Shown piece by piece: positions 16,930-29,385 of a DNA stretch of 64,000 bases. The stretch's first letter is position 1, and the number at the start of each line of letters is the position of its first letter. The stretch is taken from positions 62,001 to 126,000 of the forward strand of contig NZ_JAAXPG010000001.1 of the NCBI RefSeq assembly GCF_012396365.1, given 5' to 3'. Source of the DNA: Nocardiopsis alborubida. Its GTDB lineage: Bacteria; Actinomycetota; Actinomycetes; Streptosporangiales; Streptosporangiaceae. Made by a program: the position numbers and the translations under genes. Below the pieces are notes generated by a model that was not told the DNA's origin, ran no database searches, and saw only the letters and a program-made list of their open reading frames with translations.

Positions 16930-17466
16930 TCAGACCATGAGCGCCGCGGACCGTGGTGCCCGCAGGCGCGCGTGTTCCTCGACCAGCGCGCGGGTTCGGC
17001 GCGTGTCCAGCGCACTCCCGTCCATCGCCACCGCGAACCACACCCGCTTGCCCACGCCACAGCGGTAGACCCCACACACCTCGCGGGTGAACGCCCGGAT
17101 GAGCCCGAGTCCGCGCCCGTGGTCGTCGATCACCCGGGCCAGCTCCTCCGGCTCGGGGAACACCGGGAGCGTCGGCCCGGTGTCGTACACCTCGACCACC
17201 CCGCAGCGGCCCGGCCACGTCCAGACCTCCACGCCGACCTCAGGGCGTCCGTGGAGCAGGGCATTGGTGAACGCCTCGCTCACCGCCAACCGGGCCACAC
17301 CCAGACCGGCTTCGTCCACCTCGGCCGCCGCCAAGGCCCCGTCCACCTCGGCCGCCGCCAAGGCCCCGTCCACCTCGGCCGCCGCCAAGGCCCCGTCCAC
17401 CAGAAACCTGGCCAGCCCCACGTCCTCTGGTCCCGGACGCCTCCAGACACACATGACTTCGTTCAC
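16930..17466 (-). CDS. RsbW-like ATP-binding protein (HATPase, anti-sigma kinase type)
   Basis: A 178-residue protein. The GTG start has GAGGTG eight bases upstream. The GHKL ATPase motifs are visible: ARLAVSEAFTNALLHG (N box) near 59-74, EVYDTGP (G1) and DDHGRGLGLIRAF (G2) near 114-126. In actinomycetes such proteins bind sigma factors or STAS anti-anti-sigma proteins; no partner lies nearby. A 27-base unit encoding DGALAAAEV occurs three times near the N-terminus (residues about 25-51). Confidence 0.78.
   Translation of the reverse strand: MNEVMCVWRRPGPEDVGLARFLVDGALAAAEVDGALAAAEVDGALAAAEVDEAGLGVARLAVSEAFTNALLHGRPEVGVEVWTWPGRCGVVEVYDTGPTLPVFPEPEELARVIDDHGRGLGLIRAFTREVCGVYRCGVGKRVWFAVAMDGSALDTRRTRALVEEHARLRAPRSAALMV
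17314..17401. repeat. three perfect 27-bp tandem repeats inside the RsbW-like gene
   Basis: The unit starts GTCCACCTCGGCCGCCGCCA and repeats at 17314, 17341 and 17368, with a 7-base partial copy after. The copies are identical, so the expansion is recent. As 27 is a multiple of three, the frame is kept. Confidence 0.95.
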
Positions 17467-17664
17467 CGCGCATCACCTCGCTGTCGTCACCGATGCGGAG
17501 CGGGCCGCGCAACCGTTCACTTCCGACCCGCCGTATGTCCATCATGATTTGCAACGACGCAAATTACAAGCAGAGCAAGTCGCTATGTGTACAATGAGTG
17601 ACGATGTGTATTTCATGCGGGTGGGAAGATGGCCATGCCCGCGCAGCGAAGACAGGAGGTGGAG

Positions 17665-18519
17665 ATGCCCGAGGGCTCTCCGGTCCAGGGTTCTCCCGCC
17701 CGGCGGCACTACCTGGTCAGCCAGCTCAAGCGGCTACGCGCTCAGACCGGGTTGTCCCAGGAGGAGGCCGCCGAGGAGATGGGCTGGCACAAGTCCAAGG
17801 TCTCCCGGATCGAGAACGGCAAGTGGAAGCGGCTGAGCAGCCCGGAGATCGACGCGCTCTGCCGCTTCTACAAGGCTTCCGACGAGCTGAGGGAAGAACT
17901 CGCCCACATCGCCAAGGCCGCCAGCCGCAACCGGGCCTCCGCCTGGTGGAACGCCTACGAGGACGTTCCCGGCGGGGCGTACTACCCGTTGGAGTACGAG
18001 GCGGACCAGATCTTCGAGTACACCCTCGGCCTCTTCAGTGGCCTGGCCCAGCACCGCGACTACATCCGGGCTCTGATGGGGCGCGGCGCGGTGCCGGACG
18101 AGGCCGAACGCGAACGCAGGTTGGAGGCACGGTTGGAGCGGTCCCGCAGCATCCTGTACCGCGACCACCCGCCTCGGATGTGGTGGGTGGTCGACGAGCC
18201 CGTCCTCACCTGCCAGGTCGGCGGTCCCAGAGTGATGCGCGCCCAGCTTGAACACCTGCTGGAGCTGAGCGACCATCCCAGTGTCGACCTCCAGGTCCTT
18301 CCCCAGTCGGAGGGCATGAGCCTGAACTACGGGTTCTGCCTGCTGTGGATCGGGGACGACCGCGTCGGACACGTGGACGTGCCACCCCAGGGGCTGCTGT
18401 TCGACGCCTCCGAGGACGTGCAGCACCATGAACTGAGGTCCCACCATCTGAGGGCGGCGGCGCTGTCCCCCGAGCGTTCCCGCGACCTGGTCCGGGACCG
18501 GATCGCCGAACTCGACTGA
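17665..18519 (+). CDS. helix-turn-helix regulator with DUF5753 (Scr1 type)
   Basis: A 284-residue regulator. The XRE helix-turn-helix (RAQTGLSQEEAAEEMGWHKSK then VSRIENG) is in the first 70 residues, followed by the DUF5753 domain (YYPLEYEADQIFEYTLGLFSGL onwards) that is common in actinomycetes. The ATG at 17665 follows CAGGAGGTGGAG and is preferred over ATG 17629. A DUF397 gene follows after 13 bases. Scr1/DUF397 pairs act like toxin-antitoxin or developmental control modules; the role here is unknown. Confidence 0.88.
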   Translation: MPEGSPVQGSPARRHYLVSQLKRLRAQTGLSQEEAAEEMGWHKSKVSRIENGKWKRLSSPEIDALCRFYKASDELREELAHIAKAASRNRASAWWNAYEDVPGGAYYPLEYEADQIFEYTLGLFSGLAQHRDYIRALMGRGAVPDEAERERRLEARLERSRSILYRDHPPRMWWVVDEPVLTCQVGGPRVMRAQLEHLLELSDHPSVDLQVLPQSEGMSLNYGFCLLWIGDDRVGHVDVPPQGLLFDASEDVQHHELRSHHLRAAALSPERSRDLVRDRIAELD

Positions 18520-18532
18520 GGAGGGTCCCCAC

Positions 18533-18712
18533 ATGAGCATCCAGACCACGCCGTGGCACAAGTCCAGCTACAGCAACGAGGCCGGGACCTGTGTGGAGGT
18601 CTCCGAAGGACCCGTAACTGGGGTCCGGGATAACCAGAACCTCCACTTGGAGCCGCTGGACTTCGCCCCGGGCGTGTGGGCTCGTTTCCTGGGCAGTTTG
18701 CACACGGGCTGA
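18533..18712 (+). CDS. DUF397 domain small protein
   Basis: 59 residues, opening MSIQTTPWHKSSYSNEAG, then CVEVSEG and VRDNQN: the classic DUF397 pattern. The ribosome binding site is GAGGAGGG, 9 bases upstream. It pairs with the Scr1-type regulator directly upstream. The stop codon lies inside the following terminator stem. Confidence 0.9.
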   Translation: MSIQTTPWHKSSYSNEAGTCVEVSEGPVTGVRDNQNLHLEPLDFAPGVWARFLGSLHTG

Positions 18713-18749: not shown

Positions 18750-19325
18750 TCACACCCGAAACTGGTCCTTGACCAGCGAGGGGCCTTCGAACTCCTCGGG
18801 GATGGCGTCCATCAGCACCTCGTTGACGGTTTCTCCCAGCCACTGGTTGGAGTTGCGCCGCATCCCCTGCCGCTTGAATCCCGCCTTCTCGTAAGCGCGG
18901 ATCGCCCCGGCGTTGGGCTCGATGACAGTCAGGTACACGCACCTCAGGTTGGTGACGTGGAAGGCGTAGTCCAGCACCAGCCGGGTCGCCTCGGTACCCA
19001 CGCCCCTGCCCCGGGACTCACCCAGGGCCACCACGTACTCGCCGTTGCGCCGCATCTGGTCGATGTACACCTGGGCCAGGCCAACCGGGCACGGGCTCTT
19101 CCCGGTCAGGTCGTAGACGGTGAACCGCAACTCCCGGTCCGATGCCCGCGCGTAGCCCTCCAGGAGGATGTCTCGGGTGCTCTCCACCGGCTGCGGGGTC
19201 TGCCGGTTGTAGCCGACGATCGTCGGGATCGACTGCTCCCACCGCCAGTACTCCTCCACGAGATCGGCGCGCAACGGGCCGATCCCGGCCCTGTCGCCAC
19301 GCAGCCAGATCAGGGGTTCACTCAC
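18750..19325 (-). CDS. GNAT acetyltransferase of lasso-peptide cluster (albusnodin AlbT-like)
   Basis: A 191-residue GNAT. The acetyl-CoA loop RGRGVG is at residues 105-110 and the NAGAIRAYEKAGF segment at 138-150, as in RimJ/RimL-like enzymes. The GTG start overlaps the B gene stop (GTGA), with GGAGGAGAC upstream; a longer frame from 19367 is not needed. Fourth gene of the operon precursor, cyclase, B protein, GNAT. In albusnodin clusters the GNAT acetylates a core lysine; the core here has one lysine (Lys10), the expected target. A decayed copy of this gene lies at 29160-29330. Confidence 0.85.
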   Translation of the reverse strand: MSEPLIWLRGDRAGIGPLRADLVEEYWRWEQSIPTIVGYNRQTPQPVESTRDILLEGYARASDRELRFTVYDLTGKSPCPVGLAQVYIDQMRRNGEYVVALGESRGRGVGTEATRLVLDYAFHVTNLRCVYLTVIEPNAGAIRAYEKAGFKRQGMRRNSNQWLGETVNEVLMDAIPEEFEGPSLVKDQFRV

Positions 19326-19939
19326 GTGGTCTCCTCCACGGTCGGGATGGTCAGCAGTGCCGTGCACCGCCGTGTGCTGTCAGGTTCGGCCACCGGATGC
19401 CCCTCCGCTTCGATCCAGGCATGCAGACGGATGGGGTCGGCGATCACGCCGTGGCACCAGCGCACGCCGCGTCCGAGGACGGCCAGGGCCAGTGTCGCGG
19501 CCACCGATTCTTCCAAGCAGGCGACTCGTACGGGCGAGAACAGCCCCAAAGCACGTACTGCGTGGACGGCGTTCTCCGCCTCGGAGAGCGTGGCCGTCCG
19601 GCCGCCGCCGTGTAACGCCCGGACCAGACGCACCATGCGGCCCATCCGAGCCGAGCGCGGCCCGGCCCGCATAACGGCCAGGGAGACGGGCAAAGCCACG
19701 GCTGCGGCCATCCGGTACCGCGCGGGGACTCTGGGGAGTTCCGAGAAGCCCATGGGTAGCTCTTGCACGCCCCAGCTCGGCTCCCACCGATGACCGGTCA
19801 CCACCGCCGTGGAACCGCGGTCTGCCCTCCATTTTCGGGCAGCGGCTGGGGAGAGGACCCGTACAGTCCCCTTCCTGTAGTGGACGACCACCGTTGCGGA
19901 GCCGAGGTCGCAGGCGCGTTCTTCATCAGTCGGAGTCAT
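19322..19939 (-). CDS. lasso-peptide B protein: B1-like N-terminus plus B2 leader peptidase
   Basis: A 205-residue protein. Residues about 14-40 (SATVVVHYRKGTVRVLSPAA) look like a reduced PqqD/RRE fold, which binds the leader. Residues about 80-200 are the transglutaminase-like B2 protease, with the catalytic cysteine in VACLEES (Cys141) and histidine in RLHAWIEAEG (His173). It removes the leader so the cyclase can act. The ATG at 19939 overlaps the cyclase stop (ATGA); an in-frame start at 20002 is inside the cyclase gene. Being a B1-B2 fusion, it replaces the two separate genes of many lasso clusters. The extreme C-terminus is duplicated in the wreck at 29340-29385. Confidence 0.85.
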   Translation of the reverse strand: MTPTDEERACDLGSATVVVHYRKGTVRVLSPAAARKWRADRGSTAVVTGHRWEPSWGVQELPMGFSELPRVPARYRMAAAVALPVSLAVMRAGPRSARMGRMVRLVRALHGGGRTATLSEAENAVHAVRALGLFSPVRVACLEESVAATLALAVLGRGVRWCHGVIADPIRLHAWIEAEGHPVAEPDSTRRCTALLTIPTVEETT

Positions 19940-21627
19940 CGCATCACCGCTTCGTCCGGGAACCACTCGGGGACCGGTGCACGGAGTACCGCGCGTAACC
20001 ATGTCTCGGTCGCCACCGTGGACTCGATCTGCGCCAGCTCCTCACCGAGGCCCAGCGCGGCACGCGTCAGCGAGTTGTGCAGAGAGGGCACGTTGATCAT
20101 CCCTTCCTGGGCCAGGTGGCCGTCCACGAAATCCATCAGGAAGGGCAGGGATCGTCGCAGCCCTTCGTGGTGGTCGCTGGAGGCGTCGCCCTTGGTAGTG
20201 CGCGTCAGCAGCTTTGCAGGGAACAGGTCCCGCATCGCGTCGGCCATGACCGGCTTGTAGCGAGCAGGGCCGGGCAGGTCCTCCACGGGGATGCTCAGGT
20301 AGGCGTCCACCACCTGGGAGTCGAAGTAGGGGTTGTGCAGGGGGACCCCGACGGCCTGAGCCAGCTGCACATCCGCTCGCGCGGTACGCCCAGCGTGGAC
20401 CATGGTCCGCTCCAGCATCCGGCGTGTTCGTCCCCGGGGCGAGGGATCCTCGACGTTCTGCGGTACGGGCAAGGCGGCTCGTACCCAGGTCGGTACGGGA
20501 TCGGGGCCTGCCCTGGAACGGGCCGCCCGCAAGGCGTCGAGGGCCGACATCCTGCGGACGTGGGCCCATCGGACGGCCTCCCGGAAAGCGTGCCTCACCC
20601 GTCTCCGGTACAGCAGTTCCACCAGTTGGTACGGCGGAGTCAGTAACAGGGCGTCTCCGCCGTCGCCGGTCATGTGCATGTCCGAGCCGATCTCCTCCGA
20701 CAGCCACCGCAACTGGGCGGAGAAGTAGGCGTACGAGACCGTCGACGGTGCAGGTTCGTCGGTGGGTGGAACGCAGTCCAGGCCGCCATAGGGGGAGTGC
20801 TCCAGGCCCAAGGGGAGGAGGCGGTGGTGCACTGCGGGATGCTGTGCCGCTTCGCGGGAGTAGTCCAGATCACCACCGTGGAGTACACCGTCAGGGTGCA
20901 CGGTCACCCCGACGATCTCTCGGCCATGCGGCGCCAGGCGTTCGGCGGCCAGGAGGCCGAGTGCCGTGGAGTCGAAGCCACCGGAGAAGTCCGTGCTGGG
21001 CGTCGTGGCGTGGTTCACACGAACCGCTACCGCTCCTTCCAGTGCCGCCCGCAACCGCTCTCCATGACCGGAGCCGACATCCTGGGGCTCCCACACCCGC
21101 CTTGCCGCAGGTTCGGTGCCTCTGCTGAGGACGAGTCGGTGTCCGGCGGAGACCCTCTCGACCCCGGTGAAGTACGACCCCATCCCGTACTCCGCTGTAT
21201 CGGGACCGATCAACCTCTCCGCCACCTTGGCGAAGTCGACCTGGACGGAGCCGTACAGTCCGGCCAGAATCCGGGAACTCGAAGCCCACAGCACCCCGTC
21301 CTCGGTTCTCCGGATGTAGAGAGGCAGTGCTGAGGTCAGATTCGTCCACAGCGTGACGGATCCGGTGAGCACCTCGACCACTACGTAGCTTCCCCGCCAC
21401 CGCCAGGCCACATCGTCGGGGACGGCCAACGCCGTGGCCCGGTGTAGTTCAGCGGAGTCGACATCGCAGGTGCCGAACACCAGGACATGCCGTTCACCGT
21501 GCGAAGTGATGACGAGTTCGCGCTTGGGCCACTCGGTGCTCGTCCACACCCCGGGCACATCCGGGCTCACCGGGACGGCAGGTGCGGGACGTAGGGGAAT
21601 GGGGCCGGTGGAACCACCGAACCACAT
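19936..21627 (-). CDS. lasso-peptide cyclase (asparagine-synthase-like, C protein)
   Basis: A 563-residue protein. It adenylates an acidic side chain of the core and closes the N-terminal macrolactam. The PP-loop SGGFDS is at 215-220 and the Mg/ATP segment TGDGGDALLL near 330. The chain starts MWFGG, without the Cys1 of glutamine-hydrolysing asparagine synthetases, as expected for a lasso cyclase. It is the first large gene after the precursor (71 bases) and overlaps the B gene by 4 bases. Confidence 0.9.
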   Translation of the reverse strand: MWFGGSTGPIPLRPAPAVPVSPDVPGVWTSTEWPKRELVITSHGERHVLVFGTCDVDSAELHRATALAVPDDVAWRWRGSYVVVEVLTGSVTLWTNLTSALPLYIRRTEDGVLWASSSRILAGLYGSVQVDFAKVAERLIGPDTAEYGMGSYFTGVERVSAGHRLVLSRGTEPAARRVWEPQDVGSGHGERLRAALEGAVAVRVNHATTPSTDFSGGFDSTALGLLAAERLAPHGREIVGVTVHPDGVLHGGDLDYSREAAQHPAVHHRLLPLGLEHSPYGGLDCVPPTDEPAPSTVSYAYFSAQLRWLSEEIGSDMHMTGDGGDALLLTPPYQLVELLYRRRVRHAFREAVRWAHVRRMSALDALRAARSRAGPDPVPTWVRAALPVPQNVEDPSPRGRTRRMLERTMVHAGRTARADVQLAQAVGVPLHNPYFDSQVVDAYLSIPVEDLPGPARYKPVMADAMRDLFPAKLLTRTTKGDASSDHHEGLRRSLPFLMDFVDGHLAQEGMINVPSLHNSLTRAALGLGEELAQIESTVATETWLRAVLRAPVPEWFPDEAVMR

Positions 21628-21700
21628 GGCGATCCTTATCCGTTCGGGAGAACGTCCAAGGCCGCCGCGCGGAGGCAGCGGCCGTGGACGCCTCGGCGGG

Positions 21701-21829
21701 TCAGTTGTAGGGGTTGCGCTTGTTTTCGTTCTGGGCCCGGCCCTGGCCGAGCGTCAGGTCGGCGGCGTCGCCCAGGTCGACGATCAGTTCCAGACCGAGA
21801 TCAGGGGAGTCCTGTACCGGCTTATCCAT
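21701..21829 (-). CDS. lasso-peptide precursor, albusnodin-like (42 aa)
   Basis: A short gene. The ATG follows GGAGAGG. The 27-residue leader ends LGDAADLTL; the threonine two before the cut is the usual lasso recognition residue. The predicted 15-residue core is GQGRAQNENKRNPYN. Gly1 can only join to Glu8, the sole acidic residue, giving an eight-residue ring. Lys10 is the sole lysine, in the position of the acetylated lysine of albusnodin, whose core also starts GQG. The linear mass computed by hand is 1744.84 Da; ring closure and one acetyl give 1768.84 Da. The cyclase, B and GNAT genes follow on the same strand. Confidence 0.9.
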   Translation of the reverse strand: MDKPVQDSPDLGLELIVDLGDAADLTLGQGRAQNENKRNPYN

Positions 21830-21952: not shown

Positions 21953-21969
21953 TATCCCACCGTGGGATA
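21953..21969. promoter_or_regulatory. palindromic operator upstream of helix-turn-helix gene
   Basis: TATCCCA-CCG-TGGGATA, a perfect 7-bp inverted repeat, ends 12 bases before the GTG start of the regulator gene and lies 124 bases upstream of the divergent lasso precursor start. It is a likely binding site of the regulator itself and may also affect the lasso operon. Confidence 0.55.
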
Positions 21970-23985: not shown

Positions 23986-25863
23986 TCACCCCACGATCGT
24001 CTGCACGGACATCATTGCGGTGGGCGCGGCAAGTAGAAAGAAGAGCAGGATCGCACATCCGCTTCCGGCTTGAGACGCCCTGGAGGCGTTCCCTGTTGCC
24101 TTCTCACGTTGGGACGGCGGGGCGGATTCCGAGTCCTGGTCGTCCTCGGCCCTATCGTGTCGGAGCTGCCACTGCTCGGCTTCCTGGGAACGGCCAACCC
24201 GTTTCAAGAGTTGGGCCAGGCCCCACATGGCGTCAGAGTCTCCGGCTTCGGCGCCCTGGCGGTACCACCGTTCGGCCTCTTGGAACTCGCCCTTCCTCTG
24301 CGCCAAATCGCCCAGGGAGTCCAGATTTTCGACTTTGCCGGCCTCGACGCTCTGGCGGTACCACCGTTCGGCCTCCTGGAAGTCGCCCTTCCTCTCCGCC
24401 AAACGGCCCAGGTAGTGCAGGGAGGTGTCGTCGCCTGCTTTGAGAGCGCGCCGGTACCATCGCTCGGCTTCCCACAGGCGGCCGGCATGCTCCGCCAAGA
24501 GGCCCAGGGACCACATGGCACTGGCGTCTCCGGCTTCAGCGTCCTGGCGGTACCACCGCTCGGCCTCCTCGAGCAGGCCGGCCTGCTTAGCCCAAAAGCC
24601 CCGGTGTGCGGTGTCGCCGGTATCGACACTCTCGTGATACTGTTTCGCGGCCTCCTCGCGACGGACGGCCTTCTTCGCCAGGTCGTCCAGGCTCTTCTGG
24701 GCCTCGGTGTCGCCGGCCTCGACGCCCCGGCGGTACCACTGCTCGGCCTCTTGGAGACGGCCGACTTGTTCCAACAGGCGGCCCAGGCGTTGCAGGGCGT
24801 ATTCTTCGCCGGTCTCGGCGCCCTGGCGGTACCACCGTTCGGCTTCCCGGAAGTCGCCGCTCTCCTCAGCCAAGCTGCCCAGATACCACAAGGCACTGGT
24901 ATCCCCGGCGTTGAGGGTGCGCCGGTACCACCGCTCAGCCTCCTGGAAGCGGCCCATGCTCTTCGCCAACGAACCCAGCTCTGTCATCGCCCGGGTCTCA
25001 CCGGCTTGGGCCGCGCGGCGGTACCACTGCTCGGCCTCTGGGAAGCGTCCGGCTTGCTGAGCCGACCAGCCCAGCTGTGTCATCGCATCGGCGTTGCCGG
25101 CCTCGGCCGCTCGCCGGTACCACTGCTCGGCCTGGACAGGGTCGTCGTCGATACTCGCCAGGATGAGCATGGCCCGGGTATCACCCGCCTCCGCGAAGGC
25201 GCGGCACACCTTCGCGACTTCCTCACCCTGGCCCAGGTCCCGCAGCAACGAGACATGCTCGTAGAGGGCCTCGTCGTCCTCCCCGGTCTCAAAGGCACGG
25301 CGGAGCCGTCCCAGCGGACTCTCGTCAGGAGACGGAGCCTGCTCCTCGCGGGCCCCCTCGTCCTGGTGACGACGGCTGGAGGCCGCAGGCTGCTCGCCTT
25401 TCGCAGGCTCCTGCTGCTGCGGTCCGCCAGTGTCCCGCTCCGGGGGAGGGGCCTCCTCCGTGGGGTCTTTCGCTGCGGCCGGCTCCTCGGCCCGGTCCTT
25501 GCGGGCGGCGTTGCGCCACAGCCCCAGCATGCGGGCGACCTCGGTCTCGACGTCGGCGTCGCGGACCGTCTCGGCCAGGACCTCGGTGATCATCTCGACC
25601 GCGCCCTGGGTGGGCAGGTCCGGTTTGGTGAGGGTGTCGTGGACCTTGGTGCGAGACATCGGCACCCTCTTGTCCTCCAGAGCCCGCTGGATCTCGCGGG
25701 AAGAGGGCCAACCGGCCCGGTGGTGCAGCTCGTGCAACGCGAGGTTGAGCTCACCGAGCGGGCCCGGAGGTAGGTCGGGGCGCTTCCAGGGTTGAGGCAC
25801 ACCAGCTCCTGTGCGGAAGAGGGGGCGGGGGGTGGTCCGCGGGTGTCCGGAACTGTCAGACAT
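23986..25863 (-). CDS. Sel1/TPR-repeat protein with N-terminal helix-turn-helix-like region and C-terminal membrane helix
   Basis: About 625 residues. The first 100 or so (SREIQRALEDKRVPMSRTKV, then HDTLTKPDLPTQGAVEMI) look like a DNA-binding or Cro-like fold. A charged, low-complexity linker follows. The bulk is roughly ten 36-residue Sel1-like repeats, each with EAERWYRRAAEAGD-type sequence. One hydrophobic segment (CAILLFFLLAAPTAMM) ends the chain. These repeats form protein-binding solenoids. The start is taken as ATG 25863, not the upstream frame start at 25944. Such proteins occur near mobile elements in actinomycetes; function unknown. Confidence 0.75.
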   Translation of the reverse strand: MSDSSGHPRTTPRPLFRTGAGVPQPWKRPDLPPGPLGELNLALHELHHRAGWPSSREIQRALEDKRVPMSRTKVHDTLTKPDLPTQGAVEMITEVLAETVRDADVETEVARMLGLWRNAARKDRAEEPAAAKDPTEEAPPPERDTGGPQQQEPAKGEQPAASSRRHQDEGAREEQAPSPDESPLGRLRRAFETGEDDEALYEHVSLLRDLGQGEEVAKVCRAFAEAGDTRAMLILASIDDDPVQAEQWYRRAAEAGNADAMTQLGWSAQQAGRFPEAEQWYRRAAQAGETRAMTELGSLAKSMGRFQEAERWYRRTLNAGDTSALWYLGSLAEESGDFREAERWYRQGAETGEEYALQRLGRLLEQVGRLQEAEQWYRRGVEAGDTEAQKSLDDLAKKAVRREEAAKQYHESVDTGDTAHRGFWAKQAGLLEEAERWYRQDAEAGDASAMWSLGLLAEHAGRLWEAERWYRRALKAGDDTSLHYLGRLAERKGDFQEAERWYRQSVEAGKVENLDSLGDLAQRKGEFQEAERWYRQGAEAGDSDAMWGLAQLLKRVGRSQEAEQWQLRHDRAEDDQDSESAPPSQREKATGNASRASQAGSGCAILLFFLLAAPTAMMSVQTIVG

Positions 25864-26008
25864 CCTGCCAGCACGGGCTTCCAGGCGCCCGCTTCTGTCA
25901 ATGATTGGCCGGTCTTGGACGCCGCCGTCCGAGCCCGTCCACACCCTCTTCGGGCGGGTTCAGGCTGATCGCATCCCGATCCGCCCACCCGTGATGGAGG
26001 AACCCCCG

Positions 26009-29106: not shown

Positions 29107-29159
29107 TGCTTCCCGGGGACGGCACCATCAGACCATCAGGTGGGACTGGGCCCTGCCCG

Positions 29160-29385
29160 GTGAGGGGCCTTCGAAATCCTCGGGGATGGCGTCCGGTAGC
29201 ACCTCGTTGACGGTCTCACCCAACCCACTGGTGGGAGTCGAACCACATCCCCTGCCGCTTGAACCCCGCCTTCTCGTAGGCGCGGACCGCCCCGGTCTTG
29301 TCGCCGCGCGGTCAGATCAGGGGGCCGCTCGCGCGGTCTCCCCCACCGCGGGGATGGTCAGCAGTGTCGTGCACCGCCGGGGAAG
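29160..29385 (-). pseudogene. wreck of a second lasso locus (GNAT and B-protein ends)
   Basis: The minus strand repeats, with substitutions and frame breaks, the 3' end of the lasso GNAT gene (compare 18765-18910), jumps over its middle, and continues with its 5' end and the last 20 or so codons of the B gene (compare 19285-19365). The B end still reads RRCTTLLTIPAVGET, against RRCTALLTIPTVEET in the intact copy. An internal deletion of about 370 bases explains the layout. No precursor or cyclase remnant remains. Confidence 0.75.

What the first reader, a model, noticed from the sequence alone, without database searches (positions are those of the whole stretch)
18750..21829. Albusnodin-like acetylated lasso-peptide cluster with a 42-codon precursor
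A reading of the short minus-strand frame at 21701-21829 gives a leader ending LGDAADLTL and the core GQGRAQNENKRNPYN. Immediately downstream lie a lasso cyclase (PP-loop SGGFDS), a fused B1-B2-like leader peptidase and a GNAT, each overlapping by 4 bases. Known: albusnodin is a lasso peptide whose cluster includes an essential acetyltransferase and whose core also starts GQG with a lysine at position 10. Inference: ring Gly1-Glu8 (the only acidic residue), acetyl on Lys10 (the only lysine). The core differs from albusnodin at several sites and lacks its final Cys, so the product is probably new. No transporter gene is in the operon.
Basis: partly seen in the sequence, partly recalled or inferred. 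Interest (0 to 1): 0.92.

Follow-up and report, generated by a model that had tools for sequence, protein, structure and literature searches.

The report
Albusnodin-type lasso peptide operon, Nocardiopsis
This is a real gene set for making a small knotted peptide of a known family (albusnodin), with the same peptide encoded in several related bacteria; comparison across relatives suggests that its acetyl-adding enzyme may protect cells from the peptide rather than just decorate it.

Summary
Window 18750-21829 (-) carries a 42-codon precursor, lasso cyclase, fused leader protease and GNAT; the last two joints overlap by 4 nt. NCBIfam places precursor (56.8 bits, cut-off 30) and cyclase (680 bits, cut-off 300) in the albusnodin family: a new member of a known kind. 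The same 15-residue core is encoded in three further genomes of the genus.

All 28 intact operons found with this GNAT have an acid-x-Lys core in which the residue between varies (ring at Glu8, acetyl on Lys10); 0 of 14 comparable clusters with another readable core have the motif or the GNAT in the operon.

New here: intact, mostly constrained copies of this GNAT occur at 22 places without an intact cyclase, half of them beside operon debris; the reverse was not seen. The tree needs at least 11 changes. This fits an immunity gene, as reported for triculamin and lariocidin, better than a purely biosynthetic step. Unproven. Also, the leader-binding part of the B protein is about half size in 14 of 27 relatives, this one included.

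The parts
21749..21829 (-). leader of the precursor (27 aa, ends LGDAADLTL, Thr at -2)
21704..21748 (-). core GQGRAQNENKRNPYN (15 aa; Gly1, Glu8, Lys10, Tyr14)
   Evidence: identical in L049, L050, L052
21835..21843 (-). likely ribosome-binding site AAGGAGAGG before the precursor
   Evidence: read by eye
19936..21627 (-). lasso macrolactam cyclase, 563 aa, PP-loop SGGFDS
   Evidence: NF033561 680 bits, cut-off 300; PF00733
19322..19939 (-). fused B protein, 205 aa: shortened leader-binding (RRE) part + B2 transglutaminase-like protease
   Evidence: NF033537 68 bits, PF13471; models and fold search
18750..19325 (-). GNAT acetyltransferase, 191 aa, GTG start
   Evidence: PF00583; PDB 9iy3 E 3e-71
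21953..21969 (.). perfect palindrome TATCCCACGGTGGGATA, possible operator between the operon and the divergent regulator; imperfect copy in L051 and L053
21982..22800 (+). divergent XRE-type regulator, 71-72% identical at the same place in L051 and L053, not found in the stretches L048-L050 and L052
29145..29379 (-). dead remnant of a second copy: end of B and end of GNAT, frame broken, internal part missing

Best explanation
A complete albusnodin-type operon. The B protein removes the leader, the cyclase joins the Gly1 amine to the Glu8 side chain around the tail, and the GNAT acetylates Lys10, two residues after the ring acid. The GNAT most likely serves mainly as immunity: Lys10 acetylation disarms peptide inside cells, so cells that make it, or meet it, keep the enzyme. 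Shown: genes, family membership, the acid-x-Lys core going together with the GNAT, survival of intact GNATs without the other genes. Inferred: the chemistry in this strain, that unacetylated peptide is harmful, and that solitary GNATs act on such peptides.
For: Family models. The acid-x-Lys core is in 28 of 28 intact operons that hold this GNAT; among 20 further loci with an unbroken cyclase over the cut-off, 14 have a readable core without the motif and 6 none that I found, and none of the 20 has the GNAT in the operon; one of the 14 (L042) has one 1.76 kb behind the cyclase (Fisher 5e-10 counting L042 against, no correction for relatedness). Loci with intact GNAT but no intact cyclase: 22, of which 11 keep other pieces of the operon; loci with intact cyclase and acid-x-Lys core but no intact GNAT: 0. 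Tree: 13 changes between the states, 11 forced by well-supported branches. dN/dS of the 22 against the nearest cluster GNAT: 0.04-0.22 in 16, 0.30-0.49 in 6. Control by a gene of similar length: at the 10 such places in the genus a B of this type is intact at 2, and I found no B of this type intact without the GNAT (not all B matches were inspected). In 5 of 5 genomes with an intact cluster plus an intact GNAT elsewhere, the extra GNAT is of another type (45-66% to the own one, 79-96% to another cluster's); G014 has a similar case as a tandem. Acetylation as self-resistance is reported for triculamin and lariocidin (PMC13352647, passages).
Against: In albusnodin, removing the acetyltransferase gave no peptide at all, and reviews call the step vital and early, or a prerequisite (PMC9266682, passages; PMC10373908, passages). 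The only product seen there was acetylated, so the released form may be the acetylated one. The cyclase is three times longer than the GNAT and may break first by size alone: 22 of 22 has probability 0.0016 under that null, but 0.04 if only 11 events are independent. The GNAT is the last gene, so deletions from the 5' side spare it. Three operon remnants lost the GNAT (L043, L074, L075), and ten broken GNAT pieces were examined, so it decays too. dN/dS pair values include shared history before the loss. The order and class searches scored only the best 3 cyclase and 8-9 GNAT candidates per genome, so rare cases may be missed.
Confidence: 0.6

Rival explanations
1. The GNAT is a biosynthetic enzyme: acetylation of Lys10 on the precursor is needed before leader removal or ring closure, and the solitary GNATs are leftovers not yet decayed.
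For: Loss of product without albT (PMC9266682, passages). Tight coupling to the acid-x-Lys core. Ten broken GNAT pieces show that copies do decay.
Against: 22 intact solitary or debris-flanked copies, at least 11 changes on the tree, and dN/dS well under 1 also between two solitary copies (L128-L129 0.26; L112-L113 0.09); B, of equal length and next to it, is broken or absent at 8 of the 10 such places in the genus.
Confidence: 0.27
2. The solitary GNATs have taken on, or always had, another substrate in the cell, and the operon copy was recruited from them.
For: Some solitary copies are divergent (L120, L123, L126, L130; dN/dS 0.35-0.49 to the nearest cluster GNAT) and have no operon debris by the profile (L120 has a weak B trace).
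Against: Others lie beside broken cyclase or B genes and nest among cluster GNATs on the tree.
Confidence: 0.1
3. An ordinary lasso cluster next to an unrelated acetyltransferase.
For: A neighbouring acetyltransferase seemed unrelated to the product in ulleungdin (PMC9266682, passages).
Against: 4-nt overlap with B and 28 of 28 intact acid-x-Lys operons with the GNAT behind B on the same strand.
Confidence: 0.03

Closest known systems
Albusnodin cluster of Streptomyces albus DSM 41398 (albA, albC, albB, albT)
   Same: Precursor and cyclase family models; a GNAT beside A, B and C; acetyl-Lys10 (PMC9266682, passages)
   Different: Core sequence and no final Cys (albusnodin core recalled, not fetched); shortened leader-binding part of B here (albB not seen)
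Triculamin and lariocidin clusters
   Same: A GNAT that acetylates Lys of a lasso peptide; there reported as self-resistance (PMC13352647, passages)
   Different: Cores unrelated; lariocidin has the ABC transporter LrcD1D2 (PMC11451635, passages); whether the GNATs are close relatives was not tested
PDB 9iy3, 9iy4, 9ubc (GCN5-related N-acetyltransferase)
   Same: Close relative of this GNAT (E 3e-71) and closer to the GNAT of L068, whose core is GQGKGSSEDKRRAYN (E 6e-98)
   Different: No paper naming these entries was found in the library; organism and substrate not known to me
TbiB1 leader-binding protein (PDB 5v1u, 5v1v)
   Same: N-terminal part of the L068 B model matches over 81-89 columns, probability 0.91-1.00 (E-values only 0.007-0.26)
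   Different: The window's B model matches over only 34-39 columns, probability 0.57-0.91: one helix is missing

Membership tests
Albusnodin family lasso peptides | Precursor scores over the NF033525 cut-off | tested here: met
   56.8 bits, cut-off 30
Albusnodin family lasso peptides | Cyclase scores over the NF033561 cut-off | tested here: met
   680 bits, cut-off 300
Albusnodin family lasso peptides | GNAT gene in the same operon | tested here: met
   18750-19325, 4-nt overlap with B
Albusnodin family lasso peptides | Lysine at core position 10, two after the ring acid | tested here: met
   E8-N9-K10 here; in the 28 intact GNAT operons K10 in 21 and K11 (with Glu9) in 7
Albusnodin family lasso peptides | B2 leader protease with conserved Cys and His | tested here: met
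   NF033537, PF13471; Cys141 and His173 invariant in 27 aligned B proteins; their catalytic role is recalled
Albusnodin family lasso peptides | Threaded ring and N-epsilon-acetyl lysine in the product | not testable with these tools
   needs mass spectrometry and NMR
Triculamin/lariocidin family | ABC transporter in the cluster (lariocidin) | tested here: not met
   No ABC ATPase found in the 16-kb stretch with three queries
Triculamin/lariocidin family | Core like SKKSKPGDGIRGKGVRG | tested here: not met
   Core is GQGRAQNENKRNPYN; triculamin core as printed in PMC13192320 (passages)
Lasso self-resistance acetyltransferases | GNAT protects cells from the peptide | tested here: inconclusive
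   Indirect only: survival without the other genes

The most novel reading that the evidence does not exclude
The albusnodin acetyltransferases are a family of immunity genes against a widespread set of acid-x-Lys lasso peptides. Actinomycetes gather them as solitary copies of types other than their own cluster's, in the way known for bacteriocin immunity genes, and the reported need for the acetyltransferase in albusnodin production reflects poisoning of the host by unacetylated peptide.
Probability: 0.45. Interest if true: 0.68.

Novelty: new member of a known kind. Interest (0 to 1): 0.45.

Why it matters
The cluster itself adds one more, shared, member to a known family. The comparison makes an open point testable: why the acetyltransferase is indispensable in this family. 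If it is immunity, the unacetylated peptides may be unnoticed antibiotics and the solitary GNATs natural resistance genes. The half-size leader-binding part in half of these B proteins also asks how such a protease still finds its leader.

Tried and rejected
Unrelated-neighbour GNAT: rejected by the 28 of 28 association. Core peculiar to this strain: rejected, identical core in three other genomes. A link to triculamin GNATs by finding a triculamin cluster: a back-translated pattern found 0 of 394 genomes, so the two GNAT groups were not compared. Higher protein identity of GNAT than of cyclase (373 of 378 pairs; the wrong one of two GNATs was used for L057 there) has mixed causes: dN/dS is 0.09-0.11 in GNAT against 0.28-0.31 in cyclase for the window with L049, L050, L052, but 0.17-0.20 against 0.20-0.23 with L048 and L051; and synonymous differences are 0.25 in GNAT against 0.56 in cyclase with L049, the other way round (0.31 against 0.18) with L052. 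I read this as a mosaic history and draw no more from it. Rfam, viral and plasmid searches were not run.

Rows left out of counts: L065 and L066 (probably one cluster cut by a contig end), L057's second GNAT, L044 (broken cyclase of the other core type), the loci under the cyclase cut-off (L046, L047, L094-L107) for the core/GNAT table; L089 for the B-length count. L123 (HMM positions 9-174 of 187) was counted as intact. One GNAT match with a stop inside (G134, 38%) was not fetched. The pattern that collected cores demands acid-x-Lys; searches used a looser one, which missed L068 and L071 (found). B-only places were sought in the 40 genomes of the genus alone; matches beside weaker cyclases were taken as other lasso types without inspection, and a 58-residue match in G030 was not examined.
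Full report
What is there. On the minus strand lie a 42-codon precursor (21701-21829), a lasso cyclase (19936-21627), a fused leader protease (19322-19939) and a GNAT (18750-19325); cyclase/B and B/GNAT overlap by 4 nt. NCBIfam names the cyclase 'albusnodin/ikarugamycin family macrolactam cyclase' (680 bits, cut-off 300), the precursor 'albusnodin family lasso peptide' (56.8 bits, cut-off 30) and B as lasso B2 (68 bits, cut-off 33); Pfam gives the GNAT. The four named relatives are Nocardiopsis; the contig lengths of L032-L035 equal those of contigs of G015, G024, G022 and G014, so these handles are most likely N. sp. N85, N. sinuspersici, N. quinghaiensis and N. kunsanensis, and the window's genome is of the same genus (inference).

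How common it is. The cyclase family is over its cut-off in 20 of 40 genomes of the genus, 39 of 345 of the order (which contains the genus) and 15 of 394 drawn from the class (overlapping); searches scored only the best three candidates per genome. I took stretches around matches and scored cyclase, B and GNAT with profiles built from 23 of the loci. 28 loci have an unbroken cyclase with B and this GNAT behind it: L036, L037, L048-L063, L067 (the window), L068-L073, L088-L090.

Core. GQGRAQNENKRNPYN is the same, letter for letter, in G000, G007, G013 and G015, with different leaders. In all 28 operons with the GNAT, the core starts with Gly and holds Glu-x-Lys, where x is N, D, A or S. In seven of them (GTSSRSGSEDKRYKYQ and the like) Glu and Lys are shifted by one (9 and 11).

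Lysine and GNAT go together. Twenty further loci over the cut-off have a cyclase without stops but no GNAT in the operon. In 14 the core is readable and has no Glu-x-Lys (nine contain DTAD); in 6 I found no precursor (L078, L083-L085, L087, L093). Some of the 14 have lysines elsewhere (L076, L077, L079, L086), and L082 has one at position 10 directly after an Asp, so it is the motif, not any lysine, that goes with the GNAT. L042, one of the 14, has a GNAT 1.76 kb behind its cyclase, 96% like that of L054. This is a natural control for the lysine as target. Fisher 5e-10 with L042 counted against; relatedness not corrected.

GNATs that outlive their operon. Searches with the GNAT in the same genome sets (25 of 40, 36 of 345 and 19 of 394 genomes with a match) and stretches around the matches show 22 places with an intact GNAT but no intact cyclase. 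Eleven keep pieces of the operon (L064, L091, L108, L110, L111, L114, L115, L121, L122, L131, L132); eleven keep none by my profile (L042, whose cyclase and B are of the other type, L109, L112, L113, L120, L123, L126-L130). L064 and L091 have one break in the cyclase frame, which could be a sequencing error; L111, L112 and L121 are on contigs of 3.5-4.2 kb; L108 and L109 are identical copies in one genome. No place has an intact cyclase with an acid-x-Lys core and a missing or broken GNAT. Against this, three remnants (L043, L074, L075) have a broken cyclase and no GNAT, and ten broken GNAT pieces were examined (L116-L119, L124, L125, L133, second ones in L049 and L055, and the window's 29145-29379). 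On a tree of 52 GNATs the two states need 13 changes, 11 forced by well-supported branches; the long branches L123, L130, L132 and L121 are of unsure place, and shuffled labels need 16.6 on average. dN/dS of the 22 against the nearest cluster GNAT is 0.04-0.22 in 16 and 0.30-0.49 in 6; such pair values include history before the loss. Pairs of two solitary copies give 0.26 (L128-L129) and 0.09 (L112-L113).

Is that more than gene length? Cyclase (1689 nt) is a bigger target than GNAT (573 nt). Under hits in proportion to length, 22 of 22 has probability 0.0016, and 11 independent cases 0.04. B (615 nt) is the better control: at the 10 such places in the genus a B of this type is intact at 2 (L064, L115). 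A B search in the 40 genomes showed no B of this type without its GNAT; three unpaired matches that I fetched (L134-L136) are closest to the B of the other core type; others beside weaker cyclases were not inspected. 8 against 0 gives a sign test of 0.008. The place of the GNAT at the 3' end remains a possible reason.

Types. In the five genomes that have an intact cluster and an intact GNAT elsewhere (G013, G015, G009, G469, G487), the extra one is of another type: 45-66% identical to the own cluster's GNAT, 79-96% to that of another kind of cluster. G014 has two intact GNATs in tandem, the second 86% like that of L061, whose core is of the GT type, while its own core is GSDDQSVESKQSPYD. This resembles a set of immunities to other makers' peptides (inference).

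Literature. For albusnodin, the product was acetylated at Lys10 and a cluster without albT gave no product; reviews read this as an early, vital step (PMC9266682, passages; PMC10373908, passages). The original (Zong et al. 2018) was not held. For triculamin and lariocidin, lysine acetylation is reported as self-resistance, installed after threading (PMC13352647, passages; PMC11451635 gives it as a hypothesis, passages). The triculamin follow-up (PMC12070363) was not held. Searches for 'albusnodin'+'self-resistance' (2 papers) and lasso+acetyltransferase+immunity terms (10 papers) listed no title about immunity in the albusnodin family; of those listed I read passages of PMC13352647 and PMC9266682 only. 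The library is open-access only, so I cannot say that the idea is not in print.

Mechanism. B cuts the leader, the cyclase closes Gly1-Glu8, the GNAT acetylates Lys10. Whether before or after threading is open. I hold immunity by acetylation as the likeliest main role of the GNAT. With three ABC ATPases as queries, 27 of the 28 intact clusters had no match in the stretch held, and the one match (L052, itself a query) is 9.9 kb away; none of the 20 other loci over the cut-off had one either, while 9 of 14 lasso loci under it had one within about 4 kb (two of the queries come from those loci). How the peptide leaves the cell is unknown.

Half a leader-binding part. The stretch of B before the P-S-W-G region is 91-96 aa in 10 of the 28, at least 82 in L073 (start not found), 77 in L049 and L050, and about 44-53 in 14, the window among them; L089 was not resolved (L055, L057, L058 and L062 read by eye because the script's motif missed or misplaced it). 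The model of L068's B (pLDDT 89.6) matches TbiB1 bound to its leader over 81-89 columns; the window's B (pLDDT 88.5) keeps the first strands and one helix and matches over 34-39 columns. Only these two were modelled. No RRE/PqqD model of Pfam matched the five B proteins scanned.

Regulation and mosaic make-up. The window, L051 and L053 share a divergent XRE regulator (71-72%) and a conserved block around TATCCCACGGTGGGATA (perfect palindrome only in the window); L048-L050 and L052 have a different upstream region. Downstream, an XRE-DUF5753 gene is 88-99% identical in all six closest relatives (L048-L053). Synonymous divergence differs between cyclase and GNAT in both directions. The locus seems to have been reassembled by recombination while the core hardly changed.

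Verdict.

Noticed in passing
window 29145-29379: Broken remnant joining the end of a B gene to the end of a GNAT gene: debris of a second cluster of this kind about 7 kb upstream of the precursor.
   Followed up: yes
L039 (window's own genome, contig C12, 235000-250000): A second cyclase over the family cut-off (380.8 bits) with a probable precursor of another kind (core about GDVPEDSEDNDRYFTDVGVGVDDA), no lysine and no GNAT.
   Followed up: partly
window 16930-18712: XRE-DUF5753 regulator, DUF397 gene and anti-sigma-like kinase beside the operon; the XRE gene is 88-99% identical in the six closest relatives.
   Followed up: partly
B proteins of L036, L048, L051-L058, L063, L067, L088, L090: Leader-binding part shortened to about 50 aa; in the window's model a helix is missing that the full-size L068 model has.
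   Followed up: partly
L108 8897-9694 and L109 4821-5618: Two copies of the GNAT 9.4 kb apart in one genome with no cyclase beside them; about 800 bp of duplicated DNA at 98.6% identity.
   Followed up: partly
L042 4218-4781: Intact GNAT of the L054 type behind a lasso cluster whose core has no lysine.
   Followed up: partly
L082, near the cyclase start: Core SGNCCDTADKGAYYW with a lysine at position 10 directly after Asp and no GNAT: a lysine at that place does not by itself call for the GNAT.
   Followed up: no
window 23986-25944: Protein of many Sel1/TPR-looking repeats (EAERWYR...AGD) on the minus strand, not examined.
   Followed up: no
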